A program made the position numbers and the translations under genes. Positions 41,870-64,000 of a DNA stretch of 64,000 bases are shown here, one piece after another. The notes beneath the pieces are model-generated. The model worked only from the letters and a program-made list of their open reading frames with translations, did not search any database and was not told the DNA's origin. How positions within the stretch are numbered: position 1 is the first letter of the stretch; every line of letters starts with the position of its first letter. This DNA comes from an aff. Roholtiella sp. LEGE 12411. GTDB taxonomy: Bacteria; Cyanobacteriota; Cyanobacteriia; Cyanobacteriales; Nostocaceae. The stretch lies in the NCBI RefSeq assembly GCF_015206995.1, contig NZ_JADEXR010000008.1, positions 1 through 64,000 on the forward strand, given 5' to 3'.

Positions 41870-43705
41870 ATGTTACGAAATCAAGCAGATCTCGATATTA
41901 AGTTCGATAGTGTGTCTCAAGCACCTACAATGCTTCCTGATAAACAGGGGAAAGTAAGCCTTGTTATTACTAATGAAGGTAAAGCAAAGTATCGCAGACA
42001 TTCATTAAATCTCAACATCTATGCATCACCAGACGCAATCCTTGATAAAAGTCCTCTCAACACCCCTAAAAACCTTACTAAACTCTCAAATGGTTCATTC
42101 ACGTCTAAAGATCCTCTAGAGGGTACAGATGAGCTATTGGGTACTCTACGCATCCCAAATATTAAATTGAAACCGGGTCAGTCTCAAAAAGTTACCGCAG
42201 ACTTTACTAGCCCGGATTTGCGTAATCCAAGTGTTGTGGCACCGGGAGCCTACTATCTGATAGCCGAGATTGACCCAAACACTCTCTCTTCTAAGACTAC
42301 TGACAAGGGACTTCCAGCCAGTCAATTCATTTCTACTGGTGATCCTGTTATTGTTTGGAATGCAACAACTTTGAATGCCACAATAGCTGCGGGAAAGGTT
42401 TTGCGTGATGAAGATGGTACGATTATAAAACGTCAGATTGGAACTGGACCTACATTAGTTTCACGTAATCAAGCGATTGTTCATGCAGCAATCTATGATG
42501 CCGTTAACGCAATTTCCCGAAGTCATAAGTCTCTTTATGTGAACTTTGATGCTTCCGACCCCCGGGTTGTAAATGCATCCCCTGAAGCTGCAGTTGCGGG
42601 AGCCGCTTATACAGCGCTGGTCAATTTATATCCCGATCAAAAAGCTACATTCGATGAACAACTGAGCAGGTCTTTAGCGCAGATATCGGATGGTACAGCA
42701 GAAGACAAGGGTGTTGCTTTAGGAACAATTGTTGCTAAGCAAATACTAGAATTACGAAGTAATGACGGTTCTGCTGAAGCAGGACAAATACCTTATAAAG
42801 AAGGATCTAACCCAGGTGAATGGCGATTAACTCCCCCGGATTTTGGAAAACCAGTATCGCCAGGGTGGGGTCTAGTTACTCCTTTTTCACATGATATACC
42901 TGATCGTCAAGTAGGAGATGATCCGATTCCTCGCCTGCAACAATTCAACCTGACTGGCCCTGTAAAGTTTGGTAGCAAACAGTTCGTGGACGAGACAAAT
43001 TTTGTTCGACAACATGGCGGTCTTGAGAATACTAACACTACTAAAATTGTTCGCACTGCCGACCAAACGGAATCTGCTTTATTCTGGTCTCTTGATCGCC
43101 CGGACACTTTTAAACCTGCGGGTCAGTGGAACGAGTTTGCACAAGAACTCGCCTTGGAGAAGGGTAATACGTTAGAGGAAAATGCCCTCTTGTTTGCCCA
43201 ACTGAACATTGCGGAAGCTGATGCAGCCATCCTTACATGGGATGCCAAGTACACGTACAATCAATTGCGACCAATTACCTCAATCCGGCAAGAATTACCA
43301 GTAGATCAGTCAAACGCAGTTCAAGATCCTGACTGGAAACCGCTGTTAGTGAATTTAAAGCCTGAAGAATACGGTGATTTTCCCTTAACTCCAGCGTTTC
43401 CAGACTACTACTCAGGACATGCTGGATATGGTAATGCAGCAGGTCAAGTTTTGATTAACTTCTTCGGTAACAACACACCTTTAACCCTCGTTTCGCAAGA
43501 TTTACCCGGTGTGTCTCGCTCATACAATACTATTATGGAGGCCATAGAGGATAATGCCGCAAGCCGGATCTATGGTGGAGTTCATGTTCCGTCGTCTACA
43601 ATCACCCAGATACCAACATTAGGTAGTGTAGATCCGAACCTGGCCATTAATCCCAGCGTTTTTTTAGGTGGTCAAGTAGCAGACTTAGTGAGCAGTATGT
43701 TCTAG
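41870..43705 (+). CDS. Vanadium-dependent haloperoxidase with CARDB-like N-domain
   Basis: 611 aa. Vanadate site complete and correctly spaced: K460 and R467 (KYTYNQLRP), S515-G516-H517 (YYSGHAGYG), R566 and H572 (SRIYGGVH). The K-R gap (7) and R-H gap (6) equal those of the fungal chloroperoxidase. Residues about 1-125 form an Ig-like CARDB-type domain (VSLVITNEGKAKYRRHSLNL), rarely joined to this family. No signal peptide is evident. Oxidises halides with H2O2. AAGGGAG precedes the ATG. A MITE is inserted at the stop codon. Confidence 0.93.
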   Translation: MLRNQADLDIKFDSVSQAPTMLPDKQGKVSLVITNEGKAKYRRHSLNLNIYASPDAILDKSPLNTPKNLTKLSNGSFTSKDPLEGTDELLGTLRIPNIKLKPGQSQKVTADFTSPDLRNPSVVAPGAYYLIAEIDPNTLSSKTTDKGLPASQFISTGDPVIVWNATTLNATIAAGKVLRDEDGTIIKRQIGTGPTLVSRNQAIVHAAIYDAVNAISRSHKSLYVNFDASDPRVVNASPEAAVAGAAYTALVNLYPDQKATFDEQLSRSLAQISDGTAEDKGVALGTIVAKQILELRSNDGSAEAGQIPYKEGSNPGEWRLTPPDFGKPVSPGWGLVTPFSHDIPDRQVGDDPIPRLQQFNLTGPVKFGSKQFVDETNFVRQHGGLENTNTTKIVRTADQTESALFWSLDRPDTFKPAGQWNEFAQELALEKGNTLEENALLFAQLNIAEADAAILTWDAKYTYNQLRPITSIRQELPVDQSNAVQDPDWKPLLVNLKPEEYGDFPLTPAFPDYYSGHAGYGNAAGQVLINFFGNNTPLTLVSQDLPGVSRSYNTIMEAIEDNAASRIYGGVHVPSSTITQIPTLGSVDPNLAINPSVFLGGQVADLVSSMF

Positions 43706-43706
43706 T

Positions 43707-43834
43707 GTGGCTTTGTTGCATGAATACCTCAAATCCTTGCACAGCAATAATCGTTAATTATACACCCTTATTGAGAAAGCCTTGTATTGCAAGAGTTTTG
43801 AACGAAAGTCGGACTAATTATGCAACAAAGCCTC
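43707..43834. mobile_element. 128-bp MITE inserted at the haloperoxidase stop codon
   Basis: Inverted ends of 15 bp with one mismatch: GTGGCTTTGTTGCAT (43707-43721) and ATGCAACAAAGCCTC (43820-43834). Flanked by CTAGT on both sides (43702-43706 and 43835-43839), fitting the YTAR-type target duplication of IS5 elements. The left CTAGT contains the TAG stop of the haloperoxidase gene. No coding content. Confidence 0.8.
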
Positions 43835-43849
43835 CTAGTATAGCAAACC

Positions 43850-44145
43850 GAGAGTTTAAGAGGGTGGTTGAAAAGTCCAATAGGTTGTAAAAAAGCTCTC
43901 TCAGTATACGCTGTAAATAGATAGTGGACAGCACCGAGAGAGCAACATAAAGCATACCCCAGCAATCTGATCCTCGCTCAATATGAATTTCTGACTTGAT
44001 GATTCCAGAACCAAAACCCGGTGGTGCAAGCGTGAAGTTGATATATGGGAAGTCTTGAACGCAATTTTCTATGTCCTGGTAGAAGGAGTTAGATGGCGAT
44101 CGCTCTTGGTTAGGACAAGTCTGCTATGGATAGCTATGACACACC
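43850..44145 (+). pseudogene. Decayed IS5-family transposase, N-terminal part
   Basis: Starts with the IS-end-like GAGAGTTTAAGAGGGTGG (43850). Pieces of one transposase appear in three frames: AYPSNLILAQYEFL from 43952, then LMIPEPKPGGA from 43996, then REVDIWEVLNAIFYVLVEGV from 44031 through RWRSL. At least two single-base frameshifts, and the catalytic part is missing. Confidence 0.8.
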
Positions 44146-44317
44146 CGCTCTCTTATGACTTGCTATGTCCTAAGCTATTTAATCACTGCATATCGCCGAC
44201 TGATTCTTTCTCTAACTGCTTACCTCATAGCTCTTTCTAGTAATTTTGAATCAGAATATTGCGTAAAAAGATTCGTGAAACTCAATAAGTTCAATCTAAA
44301 TCATAGAGGGTATGAAG

Positions 44318-45313
44318 ATGGTAGAACTAACAACAATTGAAAAGTTATCGAGTAAAGCCTCTTTTACAGAATTGTTTCAAGCGGGAGATTTGGAGAATCT
44401 CATCTGGGAAGTAAAGTTATTTGCCCATAAAGCATTCAAGAACAAGAATAGTGCAGATTGGAGAGAGCTTCAGTTCATGCTATTCGAGATGAATTTATAT
44501 CTAATGCAGAATGGTTATGGACTAGGTACATCGCGTTCACTGAAAGAATGGGTAATACGTGATACCATTGAACGGGTCGAGAAACAATACCAGTTGCAAG
44601 AGCAAATCTCCAGCGAACCCAATAATGATGCAGCAGCCTTCATATCATGGCTAAAAGAGCGCATTAGCACTCATAGAGTCAACCATCATCCTTTATTTGT
44701 CCTGTTTGACAACGACGATTTGAGTGCCGAGGAAGTACGTTACTTTCTATCAAATTATCGGGTTAATATGCAACGATTTCATCTGCATGTTGCTGCTTAC
44801 AGTCTAATTGTGCCATTTGAGATGCGAGAAGAGCTTTACCACAACTTGTATGATGAGTTTGGTCAGGGTGATTTTTCCCAGGCACACCCGAATCTGTTTG
44901 AGCCACTCATGAATTACTTTGGTGGCGCACGTGAAGAGGACATTAACCCGGAAACTTGTCACTTATTAAATACCAAAATTAGTTTGTGCTGGTTTGCAGA
45001 CGGATTACATTACGGTATTGGTGGCATGGGTGCTTTAGAGTTGGCAATTCCACTACAGCAACGCCATATTTTAGCACATTTGCGTAGGCGCGGATTAAAC
45101 GAAGAAATGGTGAAGTTTTTTGTTGTACACTGCGAACTTGATGAAGACCACGGTGAAGGGTGGTTCAATGCCGGATTACCATACATACGCACAGATGAAG
45201 ACCTTCAGAAAATTTTCGACAGTGCAATGCGGATGTTAGAAGCTAGAGCTGGGGTGTATGACGGTATTCTCAGAGGCATTCTTTCACGGCGGATGGAAAG
45301 ACAAGCTAGGTAA
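44318..45313 (+). CDS. Heme-oxygenase-fold iron-containing oxidase (HDO type)
   Basis: 331 aa from the ATG at 44318, which has GAGGG 7 bp upstream; the ATG at 44312 is too close. TenA/heme-oxygenase-like helical fold of the iron-containing redox enzymes (relatives: UndA, BesC, SznF core). Possible metal ligands, numbered from 44312: E174xxH177 (ELYHNLYDEFG), H192, E243 and the HxExDxxH run H273-H280 (HCELDEDHGEGW). Such enzymes cut or oxidise fatty acids, amino acids or N-groups with O2. First gene of a four-gene operon; the ligase starts 17 bp later. Substrate unknown. Confidence 0.82.
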   Translation: MVELTTIEKLSSKASFTELFQAGDLENLIWEVKLFAHKAFKNKNSADWRELQFMLFEMNLYLMQNGYGLGTSRSLKEWVIRDTIERVEKQYQLQEQISSEPNNDAAAFISWLKERISTHRVNHHPLFVLFDNDDLSAEEVRYFLSNYRVNMQRFHLHVAAYSLIVPFEMREELYHNLYDEFGQGDFSQAHPNLFEPLMNYFGGAREEDINPETCHLLNTKISLCWFADGLHYGIGGMGALELAIPLQQRHILAHLRRRGLNEEMVKFFVVHCELDEDHGEGWFNAGLPYIRTDEDLQKIFDSAMRMLEARAGVYDGILRGILSRRMERQAR

Positions 45314-45329
45314 TATTGAGGTACAGCAA

Positions 45330-47009
45330 ATGCACTCTTATCAAGCTTTGAACCCTACCACTTTCTTAGAAAGGAGTGGTCGAGCATTCTCTCATAAAAA
45401 AGCTGTAATTCACTCTGGGGGTGTAATTACTTATGGCGAACTGTTGCAGCGTTCACGTCGCTTAGCACAGGCACTGAATCGGCTACAGGTAAATTATGGC
45501 GATCGGGTGGCAGTATTAGCAGAAAATAGCCCACAAGTTATAGAAGCCCACTTTGGCATTCCAGCAATAGGTGCTATTTTGGTAATGCTCAACCCTTGGT
45601 TGACAAATACTGACCTGATGTATGCGCTGAGCTACTGTGAAGCAAAAATTTTAGTTGTGGATGCTGACTTTGCTGATAAGATATCCCCAGAAGTTCGTAC
45701 TGCTCTCACCCACCTACAACACGTAATTATCTTCAACAACGCGATCGCACAGGCATACCCCGGAGCGATCGATTACGAAGCCTGCCTAGCAGCAGAGGAT
45801 GGGAACTGGGTTTTAGATCAAACTGTACGTGAAGAACTAGACCCTTTAGCCATTAACTTTACATCTGGTACAACCGGGCGTCCAAAAGGCGTGATCTGCA
45901 CCTATCGGGGAGCCTATCTCAATGCAATTGGTCAGGTGCTGATGATTGGACTCAACAAGGGATCAAAATACTTGTGGATGTTACCGATGTTTCATGTCAA
46001 TGGCTGGGGGCACATCTGGGCAAATACAGCAGTAAGTGCAGTACAGGTTATTCTCTCACACAATGACAGAGGAAATGAAGCAGAACTGATTAGTATGCTC
46101 GTAAAGCATGGCATTACTCATCTGTGTGGTGCACCACGCTTTGTTAGGTTGCTAATCGAGACACCAGTGGACAAACAAGCCTTTAAAGGACTGACCATCA
46201 CAACCGGTGGTGCGGCTCCATCACCAACACTAATTCAGCGTTTGCAAGAGAGGGGTGTGCATTTTGTCCATCAGTATGGTTTGAATGAAACCTATGGTCC
46301 CTATGTAGTGTGCGAACAGCAAGATGAGTGGCGGGATCTGCCGCCCGATATCCATGCTACTCATCTTGCACGCCAAGGTGTGGCAACTATTCATGCAGGT
46401 ACAGGACTACATGTGGTGGATAAAGAAATGAACGATGTTCCCCACGATGGGCAGACATTGGGTGAAGTAGTAATGGCAGGGAATACAGTTACACTGGGAT
46501 ACTACAAGAATCCTGAGGCGACTGAAAAAGCATTTCGCGATGGGTGGTTCCACAGTGGAGATATGGCAGTTGTTCATTCAGATGGTTACTTAGAAATTCG
46601 AGACCGTATTAAGGACTTGATCTATGTAGAAACCGACTATGGTTGGGAGAACATATCCTCACTCGAAATCGAGAGGGTTTTATGCCGACATGAACAGGTA
46701 CGTGAAGCAGCAGTGATTGGAATATCAGTAGGCAATAAGGCCAAAAACTCCCCTGTTTTAATGGCATTTGTAGAGATACTAGATAAGAGTTTGATTACAG
46801 AAGATAACTTGTTAAAGTTTTGCAGCTATGAACTAGCTCCATACAAGCAGCCCCATGTAATCAACTTTGTTGACTTACCCAAGACTGCAACTGGTAAAGT
46901 CCGTAAGGATCTGTTAGTAGCAGATGCCGCGAAAATTGCCGTTTCCTTCAGTGATTTAGAGCATCCCGAAAATTCTTTGATCCGACCCTTGGCAAAAAGC
47001 AAAGAGTGA
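45330..47009 (+). CDS. Acyl/aryl acid-CoA ligase (AMP-binding)
   Basis: 559 aa from the ATG at 45330. ANL adenylate-forming enzyme: P-loop NFTSGTTGRPKGVI, A5 YGLNETYGPYVV (usual YGLTET), GWFHSGDMAVVHSDGYLEI, and the A10 lysine in LPKTATGKVRKDLL. The hinge-side segment reads KDLIYVETDYGWENIS where relatives have KDIIISGGENIS, a few extra bulky residues near the pantetheine tunnel. Forms an acyl-AMP and probably an acyl-CoA. No carrier-protein gene is near, which favours CoA. Should act before or after the upstream oxidase. Confidence 0.9.
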   Translation: MHSYQALNPTTFLERSGRAFSHKKAVIHSGGVITYGELLQRSRRLAQALNRLQVNYGDRVAVLAENSPQVIEAHFGIPAIGAILVMLNPWLTNTDLMYALSYCEAKILVVDADFADKISPEVRTALTHLQHVIIFNNAIAQAYPGAIDYEACLAAEDGNWVLDQTVREELDPLAINFTSGTTGRPKGVICTYRGAYLNAIGQVLMIGLNKGSKYLWMLPMFHVNGWGHIWANTAVSAVQVILSHNDRGNEAELISMLVKHGITHLCGAPRFVRLLIETPVDKQAFKGLTITTGGAAPSPTLIQRLQERGVHFVHQYGLNETYGPYVVCEQQDEWRDLPPDIHATHLARQGVATIHAGTGLHVVDKEMNDVPHDGQTLGEVVMAGNTVTLGYYKNPEATEKAFRDGWFHSGDMAVVHSDGYLEIRDRIKDLIYVETDYGWENISSLEIERVLCRHEQVREAAVIGISVGNKAKNSPVLMAFVEILDKSLITEDNLLKFCSYELAPYKQPHVINFVDLPKTATGKVRKDLLVADAAKIAVSFSDLEHPENSLIRPLAKSKE

Positions 47010-47036
47010 AGAGCAGCCCTATGAAAAGCACAAAAT

Positions 47037-48209
47037 ATGAAACGTAATACAATTTGGGTTATGGCAATTACTGCTGGAATTGCCGTAGCAAACTTGTACT
47101 ACAACCAACCGCTACTTGCAGAGATGGGACGGAGTTTTCATGCTTCCGCTCAACAGGTAGGTTTCATCCCGATGCTCACACAAATCGGCTACGCACTAGG
47201 AATACTCCTGTTTGTTCCATTGGGAGATCTGCTCGAACGTCGAAAACTAATTGCCACTATGTTGGTTGCGACAGCCTGTGCTTTGGTAACTGCTGCTGTA
47301 TCTCCCAGCCTAGTCTGGCTGGCTGGTGCAAGCCTAGCAATTGGGATCACCACAATTGTGCCTCAACTAATTCTTCCGTTTGCTGCCCATCTTGCTAAAC
47401 CAACAGAGCGAGGAAAAGTTGTCGGAAACGTGATGAGCGCCTTGTTCATCGGTATCCTTTTAGCACGAACTGTAAGCGGGTGGATTGGAGAAACATTAGG
47501 TTGGCGAGCAATGTACTGGATTGCAGGCGGGCTAACAACTATCCTTGCAGTTGCGATCTTAAAATTGTTGCCCAAAAGCCAGCCATCGCTGGAGCTGTCT
47601 TACCAAAAATTGATCCAGTCTTTGCTAGGATTAATTCGCTCTCAGCCCGTATTACGTGAAGCTTCAATCATTGGATTCCTGTCATTTGGAGCATTTAGTG
47701 CCTTCTGGAGTACACTAGCATTTTTGCTAGAACAACCACCTTATCACTATGGTAGCCGAGCGGCGGGTATGTTTGGCTTGGTAGGCATAGTTGGGTCGGC
47801 TACTGCTCCTGTGATCGGGAGGTTTGCAGATCACAACAGTCCTCGTCTGACGGTGGGATTGGGTGTTTCCATTACAGCTTTAGCGTTTGTTGTGTTTTGG
47901 TTTTTTGGGCATCAGATGTGGGGGCTTGTGAGCGGAGTCATATTATTGGACTTAGGAGCACAATCTACTTTAGTGTCGAATCAAGCACGCATTTATAGCC
48001 TATTACCAGAAGCTCAAAGCCGTTTAAACACAGTCTATATGGTATCTAATTTCATGGGTGGATCTCTAGGGTCGATTTTGGGTGTCTATGGGTGGAGTTG
48101 GTTCCAATGGAATGGAGTTTGCTTAGTCGGATTCTCAATGCTGGTTGCATCCTTCGCTATCTTTTGTGGAGGCTACAAGCGTTCAGTTTCAGCTCCATCA
48201 CAAGAATAA
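47037..48209 (+). CDS. MFS efflux transporter
   Basis: 390 aa with twelve hydrophobic helices. Begins MKRNTIWVMAITAGIAVANL; motif A-like GDLLERRKLI follows helix 2, and a second one (GRFADHNSPRL) is mid-protein. Drug:H+ antiporter type. It lies 27 bp after the ligase and before the halogenase-like gene, so export of the cassette's product, or self-protection, is the likely job. Confidence 0.88.
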   Translation: MKRNTIWVMAITAGIAVANLYYNQPLLAEMGRSFHASAQQVGFIPMLTQIGYALGILLFVPLGDLLERRKLIATMLVATACALVTAAVSPSLVWLAGASLAIGITTIVPQLILPFAAHLAKPTERGKVVGNVMSALFIGILLARTVSGWIGETLGWRAMYWIAGGLTTILAVAILKLLPKSQPSLELSYQKLIQSLLGLIRSQPVLREASIIGFLSFGAFSAFWSTLAFLLEQPPYHYGSRAAGMFGLVGIVGSATAPVIGRFADHNSPRLTVGLGVSITALAFVVFWFFGHQMWGLVSGVILLDLGAQSTLVSNQARIYSLLPEAQSRLNTVYMVSNFMGGSLGSILGVYGWSWFQWNGVCLVGFSMLVASFAIFCGGYKRSVSAPSQE

Positions 48210-48298
48210 AGTGTTCCGATTCTGTTACGAAAAAGTCAGCATGAAATTTACGGTGCTAATCAAAACTTACAAACTTATACAATTGTGGAGAAAGCGAA

Positions 48299-50005
48299 AT
48301 GTTTGATGTTGTAATATTAGGCTCAGGGATGTCTGGTGCGATTCTGGGTATGATTCTTGCCAAGAATAATGCTCGTGTATTAATCATTGATGCAGCGCAA
48401 CACCCAAGATTTGCAATTGGTGAATCTACTGTCCCCGATACAACAAAACTGCTAAAAATTCTGAGTGAACGCTTTGATATCCCTGAAATCAATAATGTAT
48501 CAGGCTTTGTTGAAACAAGACACAATGTCACATCAAGTTGTGGAATCAAACGCAATTTTGGCTTTGTATATCATCGTGAAGGTCAGGAACAGAACCCTAA
48601 TGAGGTCTATCAAGTAGTCATTCCAGATGCTTTTGATGGTCCAGAAGTTCACTACTTTCGACAGGATGTAGATTCTTATCTAATCAATGTTGCTAAAGAT
48701 TATGGAGCAACAGTTCGTGAGAATACACGAATTGCCAATATTGACATTTCCACAGCAGGTGTTTGCTTAGAAACAGAACAAGGAGAGAAGTTTGAGGCTC
48801 GATACGTTGTTGATGGTACAGGTTATCGTTCGGTTGTTGCGAGCAAATTTGGATTGCGGGAAACTCCTCCTCGGTTTCAGACGTATTCGCGTAGCATTTT
48901 CACTCACATGATAGGTGTCAAGCCTTTTGAAGATTGTATGCCGGAGGGAATTTACAAAGTACCTAGAAAGTGGTCCCAAGGGACACTACATCACTGTTTT
49001 GATAGTGGTTGGATGTGGGTGATTCCATTTAACAATGGACCAGACCCGGAAAATGCCTTGGTTAGTGTTGGACTACAATTCGATTCACGAAAATTTCCGA
49101 ATCAGAATATTCCACCAGAAAAGGAATTTAAAGACTTTATTGCTCGCTTTCCGAGCATGGCAAGACAATTTGAATCTGCAAAGTCGGTGCGTAACTGGGT
49201 TTCTACGGGCGATCGCGTGCAATACTCTAGCAAGCGAACTATCGGTTATCGCTATTGCCTGACATCTCATGCCGCAGGGGCACTTGGCCCACTGTATTCC
49301 CGTGGTTTGGCATCAACTATGACTGCTATTTTACCCCTAGCTGAGGAGCTTTTAAGAGCGATCGATGATGGTGATTTCTCTGAGGAGCGCTTTGAGCACA
49401 TCGATCTGTTACAACAACGTACACTAGATAACGTTGATGCCATAGTGCGAGGCTCTTACATATCCTGGCGCAATTATGAGCTCTGGAACGCTTGGGTACG
49501 GGTCTGGTACGCATCAGTTAGTCTTAGCCGTCTTCACATGGACGCTGTACATAAAAAATACAGTCAGTTCAAAGATCCAGAGATTCTCAGAGAATTACAC
49601 TTTCCCCATGTTGGTACATTTTGTCCATCCATTGAGGCTTATCAGGAATTTTTTAGCACAGCAGTGAAAATTATCGATGCAGTTGCAGCTGGGGAAGTTT
49701 CTGAATCGAATGCCACAACTGAGTTATTCAGGTTGTTCAAAGAAGCAGATTTCTTGCCACCTGTCTTCAACCTCGATAAACCAGAGGTCAAACATAGTGG
49801 TCAGTACGACCTTGAGCATTGGTTAAACCTGGTTACATGGGGATATTTTAAATCTCCCCAACAAGTGAAGGATAAGCTTTTTCCTGGTTCAGGGGAAGAA
49901 AATCTTACCAAATTCAAGAACCGTTACGAGGAATCTATCAATGATCCTCGCCTAAATGAGATCAGAAAATTCCTCGCAGATACAGTTAATAAGCAAGCTA
50001 TATAG
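48299..50005 (+). CDS. Flavin-dependent halogenase-like oxidoreductase
   Basis: 568 aa. FAD site GSGMSGAILGMILAK at the N-terminus, then ARFAIGEST-like PRFAIGESTVP, which follows the first fold in tryptophan-halogenase relatives. The halogenase motif WxWxIP is exact (WMWVIP, about 242-247). The FxxPxxSxG motif appears as ALGPLYSRG, with Ala for Phe. The C-terminal 230 residues are longer than in most such enzymes. It halogenates or hydroxylates an activated substrate, using a separate flavin reductase. Starts 89 bp after the MFS gene. Confidence 0.85.
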   Translation: MFDVVILGSGMSGAILGMILAKNNARVLIIDAAQHPRFAIGESTVPDTTKLLKILSERFDIPEINNVSGFVETRHNVTSSCGIKRNFGFVYHREGQEQNPNEVYQVVIPDAFDGPEVHYFRQDVDSYLINVAKDYGATVRENTRIANIDISTAGVCLETEQGEKFEARYVVDGTGYRSVVASKFGLRETPPRFQTYSRSIFTHMIGVKPFEDCMPEGIYKVPRKWSQGTLHHCFDSGWMWVIPFNNGPDPENALVSVGLQFDSRKFPNQNIPPEKEFKDFIARFPSMARQFESAKSVRNWVSTGDRVQYSSKRTIGYRYCLTSHAAGALGPLYSRGLASTMTAILPLAEELLRAIDDGDFSEERFEHIDLLQQRTLDNVDAIVRGSYISWRNYELWNAWVRVWYASVSLSRLHMDAVHKKYSQFKDPEILRELHFPHVGTFCPSIEAYQEFFSTAVKIIDAVAAGEVSESNATTELFRLFKEADFLPPVFNLDKPEVKHSGQYDLEHWLNLVTWGYFKSPQQVKDKLFPGSGEENLTKFKNRYEESINDPRLNEIRKFLADTVNKQAI

Positions 50006-60406: not shown

Positions 60407-61507
60407 ATGATTTTTTCTCTCAAACAACTACTTAAATGGTTAATTTTGACGCTGCTATTTCCTCTAGTTTTTCTCAATGGTTGGCTAGCATTTCGGCTGG
60501 TTCAAAATTTTCAACCCCTGGTGACAATTCTTGTTTTAGCTACTTTATTTGCTTTTATTTTAAATTACCCTGTTTCGGTTTTGCAGCAGCGGGGAGTTAA
60601 ACGTAACTATGCGGTATCTTTAGTTTTTATATTAGCGTTGATAATTTTAGTTGCTTTAGGTATTACTTTAATACCGATTGTTTTAGAGCAATTTCATGAA
60701 ATGGCTAAGTTACTCCCCCAATGGATTGATTCTAGTGAAGAAAAACTCCAGAAATTAAATAATTGGGCTTTTAGTCATAAATTAAAGGTGAATTTCAGCC
60801 AGATATTAACACGAATAACTGAAGGTCTACCTGATGAATTTGAGTACCTTTCAGATAAACTTTTAGGAATTATTAGAGATACTATTGATAGTATTTCTGA
60901 AGCATTAATCATAATAGTGCTGACTTTTTATCTTTTGTTAGATGGGCCAAGACTTTGGGATGGGCTATTTAAAAAATTGCCTGGGACTTTTTCCCAGGGT
61001 GTAAGTCAATCTATTCAGCAAAACTTTCAAAATTACTTGATTGGTCAAGGAACTTTGGCCTTGCTAATGGGAGTTTCAGAAACATTAATGTTTTTAGTTT
61101 TTCAAGTCCCGTTTGGTTTACTATTTGGTTTTGGAGTTGGGCTTTTGAGCTTAGTTCCCTTTGGGGATGTGGTTAGTCTTGTTGTAATAACTTTAATCAT
61201 AGCCTCACACAACTTTTGGTTAGCAGTGAAGGTTTTTGCAGTGGCTGTTGTCATTGACCAGTTAATTGATCAGGCGATCGCACCACGTCTTTTAGGTAAA
61301 TTTACTGGGCTTCGACCAATATGGGTGTTAATCGCCTTGCTTGCAGGAACCAATATTGGAGGGGTATTAGGTTTGCTAATTGCGGTTCCTGTGGCTGGTT
61401 TTATCAAAGATGCAGCAGATGGTTTTTCTAAATCTGATTATCCTGAGAATGTAGCAAAGAGTGAAACGACATCAGAATTATTAGCAAAGGAATCAATATC
61501 GCAATGA
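60407..61507 (+). CDS. AI-2E family (PerM-like) permease
   Basis: 366 aa from the ATG at 60407; the frame opens at 60374 but the first 11 residues are unlikely. Seven or eight helices, a central soluble region with EKLQKLNNWAFSHKL, and the family signature near the C-terminus (DQLIDQAIAPRLLGKFTGLR, IWVLIALLAGTNIGGVLGLL). Members export signals or exchange Na+/H+; the substrate is unknown. It is the only transporter near the small peptide genes that follow. Confidence 0.88.
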   Translation: MIFSLKQLLKWLILTLLFPLVFLNGWLAFRLVQNFQPLVTILVLATLFAFILNYPVSVLQQRGVKRNYAVSLVFILALIILVALGITLIPIVLEQFHEMAKLLPQWIDSSEEKLQKLNNWAFSHKLKVNFSQILTRITEGLPDEFEYLSDKLLGIIRDTIDSISEALIIIVLTFYLLLDGPRLWDGLFKKLPGTFSQGVSQSIQQNFQNYLIGQGTLALLMGVSETLMFLVFQVPFGLLFGFGVGLLSLVPFGDVVSLVVITLIIASHNFWLAVKVFAVAVVIDQLIDQAIAPRLLGKFTGLRPIWVLIALLAGTNIGGVLGLLIAVPVAGFIKDAADGFSKSDYPENVAKSETTSELLAKESISQ

Positions 61508-61561
61508 TTTACGGATGCCATGAAATATCGTAATTATTAGGTTGAATATTCGCTTGCAAAA

Positions 61562-61666
61562 CTAACATAAAACGTTAACTTTGGGGTTTAATTTATCAAA
61601 AAAAACATCCAATTCATCGTCAGATAAATGCATGAAATCAGGTTTGTTTATTGAGACTTTAAACAT
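61562..61666 (-). CDS. Small ORF resembling a peptide-precursor leader
   Basis: 34 aa: starts MFKVSINKPDFMHLSDDELD and ends ...KLNPKVNVLC. Divergent from the 76-aa peptide gene. The pattern L-x2-F-x3-L-x-P-(x)-K-V is shared with that peptide's leader (LETFLHELAPAKV and LDVFFDKLNPKV), so the two may be paralogous leaders; this one ends before any core, at a single Cys. Too short for certainty. Confidence 0.4.
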   Translation of the reverse strand: MFKVSINKPDFMHLSDDELDVFFDKLNPKVNVLC

Positions 61667-61788
61667 TTAATTATGTCCTAAAACTTTGATAAAAAATTTG
61701 TATTTAGCTAAAAATTGGTATTTTGCAATTTTGACTATAACTGTAAAATTGAGGAGTCAGATTAACTCATAATTCCAAGAATAATACA

Positions 61789-62019
61789 ATGGCTAAAATA
61801 TTAATTTCCGACTTTGAACTTATTGATCTAGAAACATTTTTGCATGAACTGGCTCCAGCCAAAGTGGATACTGTACAGGGGGGTTATTTCGAGCCTTGGG
61901 AAAATTTTTTGCAGCCTTGGGGAATTTTTTCGGGCGGGAGGTTTCTTTCTAGCCCTGATGGAGTTATTTCAAATCCTGGAGGAGTTCTTTCTACACCCGC
62001 GGGAATTCTCCAATATTGA
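61789..62019 (+). CDS. Putative peptide precursor with GG motif and heptapeptide repeats
   Basis: 76 aa. The leader-like part (residues 1-32) is acidic and helical and ends KVDTVQGG, a double-Gly cleavage-like site. The rest splits into near-heptads: FEPWENF, LQPWGIF, SGGRFL, SSPDGVI, SNPGGVL, STPAGIL, then QY. That pattern (S-x-P-x-G-hydrophobic pair) is in protein and DNA. No maturase or C39 exporter lies within the window. A ribosomally made secreted or modified peptide is the best guess. The DNA copy TTGGGAAAATTTTTT/TTGGGGAATTTTTTC shows duplication. Confidence 0.6.
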   Translation: MAKILISDFELIDLETFLHELAPAKVDTVQGGYFEPWENFLQPWGIFSGGRFLSSPDGVISNPGGVLSTPAGILQY

Positions 62020-62040
62020 GTCCAGGTAGAGATACACCAT

Positions 62041-62090
62041 GTAGAGACGTTGCATTGCCATGTAGAGACGTTGCATTGCAACGTCTCTAC
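62041..62090. repeat. GTAGAGACGTTGCA repeat and hairpin
   Basis: A direct repeat GTAGAGACGTTGCATTGC (62041-62058) then the same unit at 62062 folding with TGCAACGTCTCTAC (62077-62090), 14-bp arms and a 1-nt loop. A common interspersed palindrome of filamentous cyanobacteria. It may also end the peptide transcript. Confidence 0.8.
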
Positions 62091-62254
62091 CAAAGGATTT
62101 GTTGCAACCGTTAATTGAATCGGTATAAGAGGCGAATTCAAATCTTTTCCAATGAGGTACGTGTTTAGTGCTGAAATGGTCGAAAAAGAGGGATTTTCGA
62201 GGTTGAAAGACTGTACTTCATAACATCAGGAAGCGCTGTAAATAAACCATATTG

Positions 62255-62365
62255 CAATACGGTTCAGTTAAGGTCAGTAATTGACATTATTCTCAATATT
62301 TAAACCTAAGAATAAGTCTTTCAGCATTAGAAAAATTGGGATTTTTCGTTAACTGAACCGTATTG
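62255..62365. mobile_element. 111-bp MITE with 17-bp ends and 10-bp target duplication
   Basis: Perfect inverted ends CAATACGGTTCAGTTAA (62255-62271 and 62349-62365). Flanked by perfect 10-bp direct repeats AACCATATTG (62245-62254 and 62366-62375). No coding content. A 10-bp duplication and these ends suit mobilisation by an IS4-family transposase encoded elsewhere. Confidence 0.92.
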
Positions 62366-62407
62366 AACCATATTGAGTGTTAAGCCTTCTGTTCGCCAAA
62401 GGCGGAT

Positions 62408-62436
62408 AAAAAAGCCCCCAGCATTTCTACTGGGGG
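62408..62436 (-). terminator. Terminator of clpC
   Basis: On the minus strand CCCCCAG-TAGAAATG-CTGGGGG then CTTTTTT: a strong GC stem and U tail, about 130 bp after the clpC stop. Confidence 0.93.
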
Positions 62437-62564
62437 TTAGAATTAATACCATTTCACTTTATGTTTGCCGGAGATGCCCCCGTCTGCGCCTCTGCCTAAG
62501 CAAGAGGCTGGAGTGTTTATCAAATATTACAGCAAAAAGTGATCAGGTATAAATGGTATAAACG

Positions 62565-64000
62565 TTAGCCAACATTTGCTAATAGCAATTCTCGTTTTTC
62601 TGACTTTTGGACTCTCACTTGACCATCATCGTCAACATCAACAATGGCTGTGTCTCCATCTAGGATTTGACTAGACAGCAGGGCTTCAGCAAGAGAATCT
62701 TCTAAAAGGCGCATAATTGCGCGACGCAATGGTCTAGCACCATAGCTGGGATTATAGCCTTCTTGTACCACAAGCTCTTTGAAGCGTTCGGTGACTTCTA
62801 AGCTAATTCCTCTTTCAGTTAAGCGAGTTGAAACATCGCGGAGCATAATATCAGCGATTTGCTTGACTTCATTCTTAGAAAGCTGGGTGAAGACGATAAT
62901 CTCATCAACACGGTTAAGAAACTCAGGACGGAAGTAAGCTTTTAACTCCTCATTTACCAGGGTGCGGATACGGTTGTAACTAGCTTCGGGTTGATTGTCG
63001 AACTCAAACCCTAAACTACTGCCACCTTTTTCAATTACCTTAGAACCAATGTTAGAAGTCAAGATAATTAGTGTGTTCTTGAAGTCTACTTTCCGGCCTT
63101 TGGCATCGGTGAGATGCCCGTCATCCAAAATTTGCAGTAGCATATTGAATACATCGGGGTGCGCTTTTTCGATTTCATCGAATAGCAGTACCGTGTAAGG
63201 TTTACGCCGCACAGCTTCGGTAAGTTGTCCACCTTCATCGTATCCGACATAACCAGGTGGCGAACCAATGAGCTTGGAGACGGTATGGCTTTCCATAAAT
63301 TCGGACATATCCAAGCGAATCATTGAGTCTTCTGAACCGAAGAAGTAAGCAGCCAATGCCTTCGCCAATTCTGTTTTACCGACTCCAGTAGGCCCAGAGA
63401 AGATAAAGCTAGCGATGGGACGATTGGGGCTTTTTAGTCCCACTCTGGCACGACGGATACCGCGAGATACAGCCGAGACTGCCTGTTCTTGACCGATTAG
63501 CCGTTGATGAAGAGTGTCTTCCAAGTGTAATAACAATTCTGACTCCGATTCAGTCAGCTTGTTAACTGGTACGCCAGTCCACGAGGCAACGATTTGGGCG
63601 ATGTCTTCCTCGTCAACGATAGTAGAACTGACAGGCTTATCGTCTTGTGGAAATGTTGCCTGTAATTGTGTTGTGAGTTCCAATTCCTGGTCGCGCAGTT
63701 GTCCAGCTTTGTCAAAATCCTGGACTCTTACAGATGCTTCTTTGGCTTTGGTAACACCAGTGAGTTCACGCTTGAGTTCTTTATTGGGAGAAACTTGGGA
63801 GTTCCGCAGACGAACGCGAGAACCAGCTTCATCAATCAAGTCAATTGCCTTATCTGGCAAAAAGCGATCGCTAATGTAGCGGTCTGACAACTGTGCTGCT
63901 GCGACAATCGCTGCATCAGAAATAGTCACTTTATGGTGTTGCTCATAAGCTTGACGCAAGCCGTAGAGAATTTCAATAGTTTCTTCTACTGAAGGTTCCC
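62565..64000 (-). CDS. clpC: ClpC ATPase, C-terminal part (cut by window edge)
   Basis: The last 478 or so residues of a Clp/Hsp100 unfoldase. The reading frame runs on past 64000 ([14 protein letters not shown] precedes RQAYEQHHK), so the start is outside. Visible: end of D1, the UVR-type middle region ([18 protein letters not shown]), D2 Walker [15 protein letters not shown], Walker [11 protein letters not shown] and the sensor/arginine region [15 protein letters not shown]. Works with ClpP/ClpR in protein turnover. A terminator follows at 62408-62436. Confidence 0.97.

What the first reader, a model, noticed from the sequence alone, without database searches (positions are those of the whole stretch)
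61789..62019. Repeat-built peptide precursor with double-Gly leader
A short acidic leader ending QGG, then five to six heptads with conserved Pro and Gly (S-x-P-x-G-hydrophobic pair) and two PW units. This looks like a multi-copy core that might be cut or modified at each repeat. I cannot place it in a named RiPP family.
Basis: partly seen in the sequence, partly recalled or inferred. Interest (0 to 1): 0.65.

Follow-up and report, generated by a model that had tools for sequence, protein, structure and literature searches.

The report
Orphan secreted-peptide gene with repeat core
A cyanobacterium carries a small gene whose front half is a standard export tag shared with about a hundred sister genes, but whose back half, the part that would be released, is a one-of-a-kind chain of seven-residue proline/glycine repeats.

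Summary
ORF 61789-62019 (76 aa) is an acidic leader ending QGG plus a 44-residue tail with 7-residue periodicity (0 of 50,000 shuffles reach it). The leader belongs to a Nostocaceae family that no Pfam or NCBIfam model covers (MAKIxIxDFHxxDxxTFLHxLAPAQxETVLGG; 95 distinct precursors gathered by motif). It carries the V-4/V-7/L-12 anchors that C39 peptidases bind. DNA homology runs from about -61 nt and stops within 5 bp of the Gly-Gly codons, the signature of conserved-leader/variable-core precursors. In 10 of 45 loci, sister genes lie within 10 kb of a long C39-peptidase ABC exporter (about 0.9 expected). The host genome has the orthologous exporter (78-84% identical), in a cluster with HlyD, rotamase and a kinase-HopA1 pair of the class V lanthipeptide dehydratase type. 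The window gene is an orphan on an ~890-bp segment absent from four congeners. Its core has no homologue. Most likely it is a double-Gly precursor cleaved once after GG and exported in trans. Cutting or modification at each repeat has no support: no constant cleavage motif, no Cys, no enzyme nearby. It is a new variant of a known kind (cyanobacterial group I/II bacteriocin precursors). Product and function are untested.

The parts
61789..62019 (+). precursor ORF, 76 aa
   Evidence: intact ORF; leader homologues
61789..61884 (+). double-Gly leader (residues 1-32), hydrophobic at -4 (V), -7 (V), -12 (L), -15 (L)
   Evidence: profile match 70.6 bits, E 1.3e-18, profile includes this sequence; position analysis
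61885..62016 (+). 44-aa core: Tyr, six repeat units, Gln-Tyr; no Cys, six Ser/Thr
   Evidence: lag-7 periodicity, 0 of 50,000 shuffles; no homologue in 218 family or 391 order genomes, best other match E 0.0045
61888..61929 (+). PW heptads FEPWENF and LQPWGIF
   Evidence: 21-bp tandem repeat, 89% matches
61930..61947 (+). degenerate 6-residue unit SGGRFL
   Evidence: sequence
61948..62010 (+). three heptads SSPDGVI, SNPGGVL, STPAGIL
   Evidence: 21-bp direct repeats
61728..61788 (+). upstream region shared with sister genes (contains ACTATAACTGTAAAATTGAGGAGTCA, promoter-like)
   Evidence: 73-74% DNA identity to paralogues from -61 nt into the leader; alignment
61517..62405 (.). about 890-bp segment carrying the ORF, absent at the same site in four congeners
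   Evidence: flank alignment
62041..62130 (.). palindromic interspersed repeat downstream of the ORF (GTAGAGACGTTGCA...), high copy in the genus
62248..62372 (.). MITE-like element with 17-bp terminal inverted repeats (62255-62271 / 62349-62365), three other copies at 97-98%

Best explanation
A stand-alone (orphan) double-Gly precursor gene of a Nostocaceae peptide family. The leader is recognised in trans by a long-type C39-peptidase ABC exporter (best candidate in this genome: the contig C68 system with HlyD and a SurA-type rotamase), cut once after Gly32, and the 44-residue Pro/Gly-heptad peptide is exported whole. The core is a recent, lineage-specific replacement built by 21-bp repeat expansion behind a kept promoter and leader. 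Shown: leader homology, peptidase anchor residues, exporter co-localisation of sister genes, presence of the orthologous exporter. Inferred: expression, cleavage, export, and the route by which the core arose. Unknown: activity (most likely an extracellular signalling, matrix or antagonistic peptide).
For: Leader homologues in own genome, in 18 of 218 family genomes at E<=0.001 by single-sequence search and in 62 of 391 order genomes by profile. V-4, V-7, L-12 match the pockets of the LahT C39 peptidase (PMC6363468). DNA homology starts at about -61 nt and ends at the GG codons. Leader dN below dS against the nearest relatives (about 0.18-0.27 vs 0.41-0.98). 10 of 45 sister loci within 10 kb of a C39 exporter, 0.9 expected, binomial P 2e-8, not corrected for shared ancestry. 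Inspected clusters hold precursor, HlyD, long exporter with cNMP domain, HTH protein and usually rotamase. Own C68 exporter is 78-84% identical to those and its cluster has the same genes.
Against: No exporter or modifying gene beside this ORF; the sister genes of the four congeners and three of the own sister loci are also unlinked. No homologue of the core, so no comparative selection test on it. Weak ribosome-binding site. The ORF sits among multi-copy repeats on a segment absent from relatives, so a non-functional gene is possible. Several other exporters could be the partner.
Confidence: 0.72

Rival explanations
1. Multi-core precursor: after leader removal the chain is cut (or cyclised) at each heptad into 6-8 residue Pro/Gly peptides, as in cyanobactin-like multi-core RiPPs.
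For: Clear 7-residue units; rotamase and other enzymes exist elsewhere in the genome.
Against: No invariant cleavage motif between units; units vary at positions 1, 2 and 4 and one is six residues long; no gene suggestive of a dedicated protease or cyclase next to the ORF; no relative with the same core.
Confidence: 0.07
2. Dying or accidental gene: a leader copy captured with a 21-bp minisatellite on a repeat-rich segment, translated or not but without function.
For: Lineage-specific ~890-bp segment holding multi-copy repeats; core without homologue; a comparable 21-bp minisatellite encoding SSPEGLM heptads occurs without a leader in another genome.
Against: ORF intact, upstream region and leader both kept at 73-79% with leader dN below dS; break point coincides with the GG codons rather than falling at random; among units 4-6 synonymous differences exceed non-synonymous (pS 0.43-0.69, pN 0.23-0.33; weak, and not seen for units 1-2).
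Confidence: 0.2
3. Dehydrated repeat peptide (a refinement of the main reading, not exclusive with it): the kinase and HopA1 lyase of the C68 cluster act in trans on the Ser/Thr that start each late heptad, giving a Dha-rich peptide.
For: Kinase-like and HopA1 genes in own C68 cluster, the pair that dehydrates Ser/Thr in class V lanthipeptides (PMC9486802); related leaders are next to that pair in other genomes; six Ser/Thr in the core.
Against: The precursors directly beside the kinase-HopA1 genes have a different core type (hydrophobic, often with a late SF motif and Ser/Thr/Asn) and more distant leaders; no Cys for rings; no test of leader recognition by the kinase.
Confidence: 0.1

Closest known systems
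Cyanobacterial bacteriocin gene clusters of groups I/II (Wang, Fewer, Sivonen 2011, PMC3140520)
   Same: Long C39-peptidase ABC exporter, HlyD, SurA-type rotamase, HetP-like neighbour, short double-Gly precursors, some distant from the cluster
EbfG1-4 / PteB of Synechococcus elongatus (PMC4997328)
   Same: Small GG-motif proteins processed and secreted by a C39-peptidase transporter, cores without homologues elsewhere
   Different: EbfG genes are clustered next to pteB and act in biofilm formation; nothing is known of the function here; sequences not compared directly
Class V lanthipeptides (cacaoidin, CaoK/CaoY, PMC9486802)
   Same: The own genome's exporter cluster carries the kinase-like plus HopA1 pair beside related double-Gly leaders
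   Different: No enzyme next to this ORF, core has no Cys, modification not shown
HetC exporter of Nostoc PCC 7120 (PMC10986499)
   Same: Long C39 exporter with N-terminal cNMP domain, substrate unknown
   Different: No link between this ORF and hetC was tested

Membership tests
Double-Gly (C39/PCAT) precursor | N-terminal leader ending GG/GA/GS with hydrophobic -4, -7, -12 | tested here: met
   QGG end; V-4, V-7, L-12, L-15, anchors as in PMC6363468
Double-Gly (C39/PCAT) precursor | Leader homologous to other precursors while cores diverge | tested here: met
Double-Gly (C39/PCAT) precursor | C39-peptidase exporter in the genome | tested here: met
   11 C39 matches, 8 of them near full length; C68 orthologue of exporters beside sister genes
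Double-Gly (C39/PCAT) precursor | Cleavage after GG and export | not testable with these tools
   needs protease assay or MS
Cyanobacterial bacteriocin group I/II cluster precursor (Wang 2011) | Gene within 20 kb of the exporter-HlyD-SurA cluster | tested here: not met
   no C39 match anywhere on contig C330 (78,950 bp); sister genes in other genomes do meet it
NHLP / N11P (proteusin, Nif11) precursors | Nitrile-hydratase-like or Nif11 leader | tested here: not met
   no Pfam or NCBIfam match up to E 10
Multi-core RiPP (cyanobactin-like) | Conserved recognition/cleavage sequences flanking each core copy | tested here: not met
   units vary, no constant spacer
Class V lanthipeptide | Kinase + HopA1 in the gene's own cluster, Cys and Ser/Thr in the core | tested here: not met
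   pair is on C68, not here; no Cys

The most novel reading that the evidence does not exclude
A repeat-expanded core under an orphan leader, modified in trans: the C68 kinase-HopA1 pair dehydrates the Ser/Thr of the heptads and the long exporter releases a Pro/Gly turn polymer with regularly spaced dehydroamino acids, a RiPP type not described in the papers read here.
Probability: 0.08. Interest if true: 0.75.

Novelty: new variant of a known kind. Interest (0 to 1): 0.42.

Why it matters
It shows a conserved leader and promoter carrying a newly made, repeat-built core found in one genome only: a snapshot of how double-Gly peptide repertoires gain new cores. The leader family itself, unnamed in Pfam and NCBIfam, can be used to collect orphan precursors and assign them to long C39 exporters, including clusters with a kinase-HopA1 pair in cyanobacteria.

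Tried and rejected
Pfam and NCBIfam on the ORF: nothing. PDB sequences: nothing. Plasmid tblastn: nothing. Named-genome scan: one locus, Komarekiella atlantica, leader only. Core searches in 218 and 391 genomes: best other match E 0.0045; the two best (L039, L040) are ORFs over 21-bp tandem repeats without a leader; the many repeated hits near E 0.4 look like one conserved multicopy locus and were not followed; DNA hits of the core are chance matches, not arrays. Idea that the tail is a frameshifted sister core: no DNA similarity beyond the GG codons. AlphaFold single-sequence model: mean pLDDT 43.5, not used beyond noting a weak helix at 14-25. Rfam over 61400-62600: only sub-threshold matches.

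Full report
What is there. The ORF at 61789-62019 is real and intact. It falls into a 32-residue acidic leader (net charge about -4.4) and a 44-residue tail. The tail repeats with a period of seven: FEPWENF, LQPWGIF, SGGRFL, SSPDGVI, SNPGGVL, STPAGIL, then QY. Twelve of 36 residue pairs at lag 7 are identical; none of 50,000 shuffles reached this at any lag from 3 to 14. The period is also in the DNA as 21-bp units.

The leader is one of a family. In the same genome the leader profile finds strong matches on C113, C180 (three genes) and C54, and a weaker one on C68. A single-sequence search finds matches in 18 of 218 family genomes, a leader profile in 62 of 391 order genomes. Sister cores are quite different (IHDGIN...DNN...SIDNS and DFSRLTINLI types), and neither the ORF nor six sister and related precursors match a Pfam or NCBIfam family above cut-off. 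Of 95 distinct precursors gathered by motif, only the window gene has a 7-residue repeat core; one other (C68) has a triplet repeat core, and one (C54) a weaker lag-4 signal.

The leader reads as a C39-peptidase substrate. Counted back from GG, the window has Val-4, Val-7, Leu-12 and Leu-15; in 23 aligned leaders -4 is hydrophobic in 23, -12 and -15 in 22. These are the residues that sit in the hydrophobic groove of the LahT peptidase (Val-4, Leu-7, Leu-12; PMC6363468). That fit was made on a leader already chosen for its GG end, so it supports rather than proves.

Homology stops at the cleavage site. DNA similarity to sister genes begins about 61 nt upstream of the ATG and ends at the GG codons, within 5 bp. 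The first genes of several sister arrays share the upstream stretch (window ACTATAACTGTAAAATTGAGGAGTCA). Leader dN is well under dS for the nearest relatives. A conserved promoter-plus-leader with a swapped core is the usual pattern of double-Gly precursor families (inference from established knowledge).

Exporter link. In 17 genomes, 10 of 45 sister loci lie within 10 kb of a C39 exporter, against 0.9 expected; the genomes are related, so the independent events are fewer than ten. Seven clusters were read: all hold the long exporter, a HlyD-like gene and sister precursors close to them; most also have a SurA-type rotamase, and four (G002, G003, G041, G056) a kinase-like and a HopA1-like gene, assigned by Pfam in G041 and by matching protein starts in the others. 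The own genome's C68 cluster has all of these by Pfam, and its exporter is 78-84% identical to those beside sister genes, the other own long exporters 66-76%. Group I/II clusters with long exporter, HlyD and SurA, and precursors far from their cluster, were described in 2011 (PMC3140520). Kinase plus HopA1 is the class V lanthipeptide dehydratase (PMC9486802); whether it touches this leader is not tested.

Origin of the locus. In four congeners the flanking genes (AI-2E-type transporter and clpC-like, named from their sequence) are conserved at 88-94%, and the ~890 bp between 61517 and 62405 are missing or replaced by unrelated DNA; in two the flanks meet within 2 bp. The segment also carries a palindromic repeat and a MITE-like element with other copies in the genome. 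No target-site duplication was established, so the mode of gain (insertion here or loss there) is not proven.

Mechanism. Most likely the precursor is exported in trans by a long C39 exporter and cut once after Gly32. Cutting at each repeat is unlikely: units share no constant cleavage site. A dead gene cannot be excluded (20%).

Limits. The core has no homologue, so its function, expression and modification are open. The co-localisation table was compiled by hand from search outputs, which list only the best matches, and the sister loci were merged by eye.

Noticed in passing
window 41870-50005: Natural-product-like gene run: vanadium-chloroperoxidase-like/DUF6851 protein, haem-oxygenase-like iron redox enzyme (PF14518), AMP-binding ligase, possible MFS transporter, FAD-dependent Trp-halogenase-like protein.
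   Followed up: partly
L155 and L171 (own genome C68: 4.2-21.4 kb): Exporter cluster with kinase-like gene, HopA1, several double-Gly precursors, rotamase, HlyD, long C39 exporter with cNMP domain and an HTH protein; similar gene sets in four other genomes.
   Followed up: partly
L080 (G000:C90:11312-11425): Another double-Gly-type precursor with a repeated Pro-rich core (PTPPVFLPP twice) in the same genome.
   Followed up: no
window 62248-62372: MITE-like element with 17-bp perfect terminal inverted repeats, three further copies at 97-98% in the genome.
   Followed up: partly
window 62041-62130: Palindromic interspersed repeat GTAGAGACGTTGCA..., dozens of copies in the genomes of the genus.
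   Followed up: no
L039 1384-1600: 21-bp minisatellite of 10 copies encoding SSPEGLM-like heptads, without a leader, in another Nostocaceae genome.
   Followed up: no
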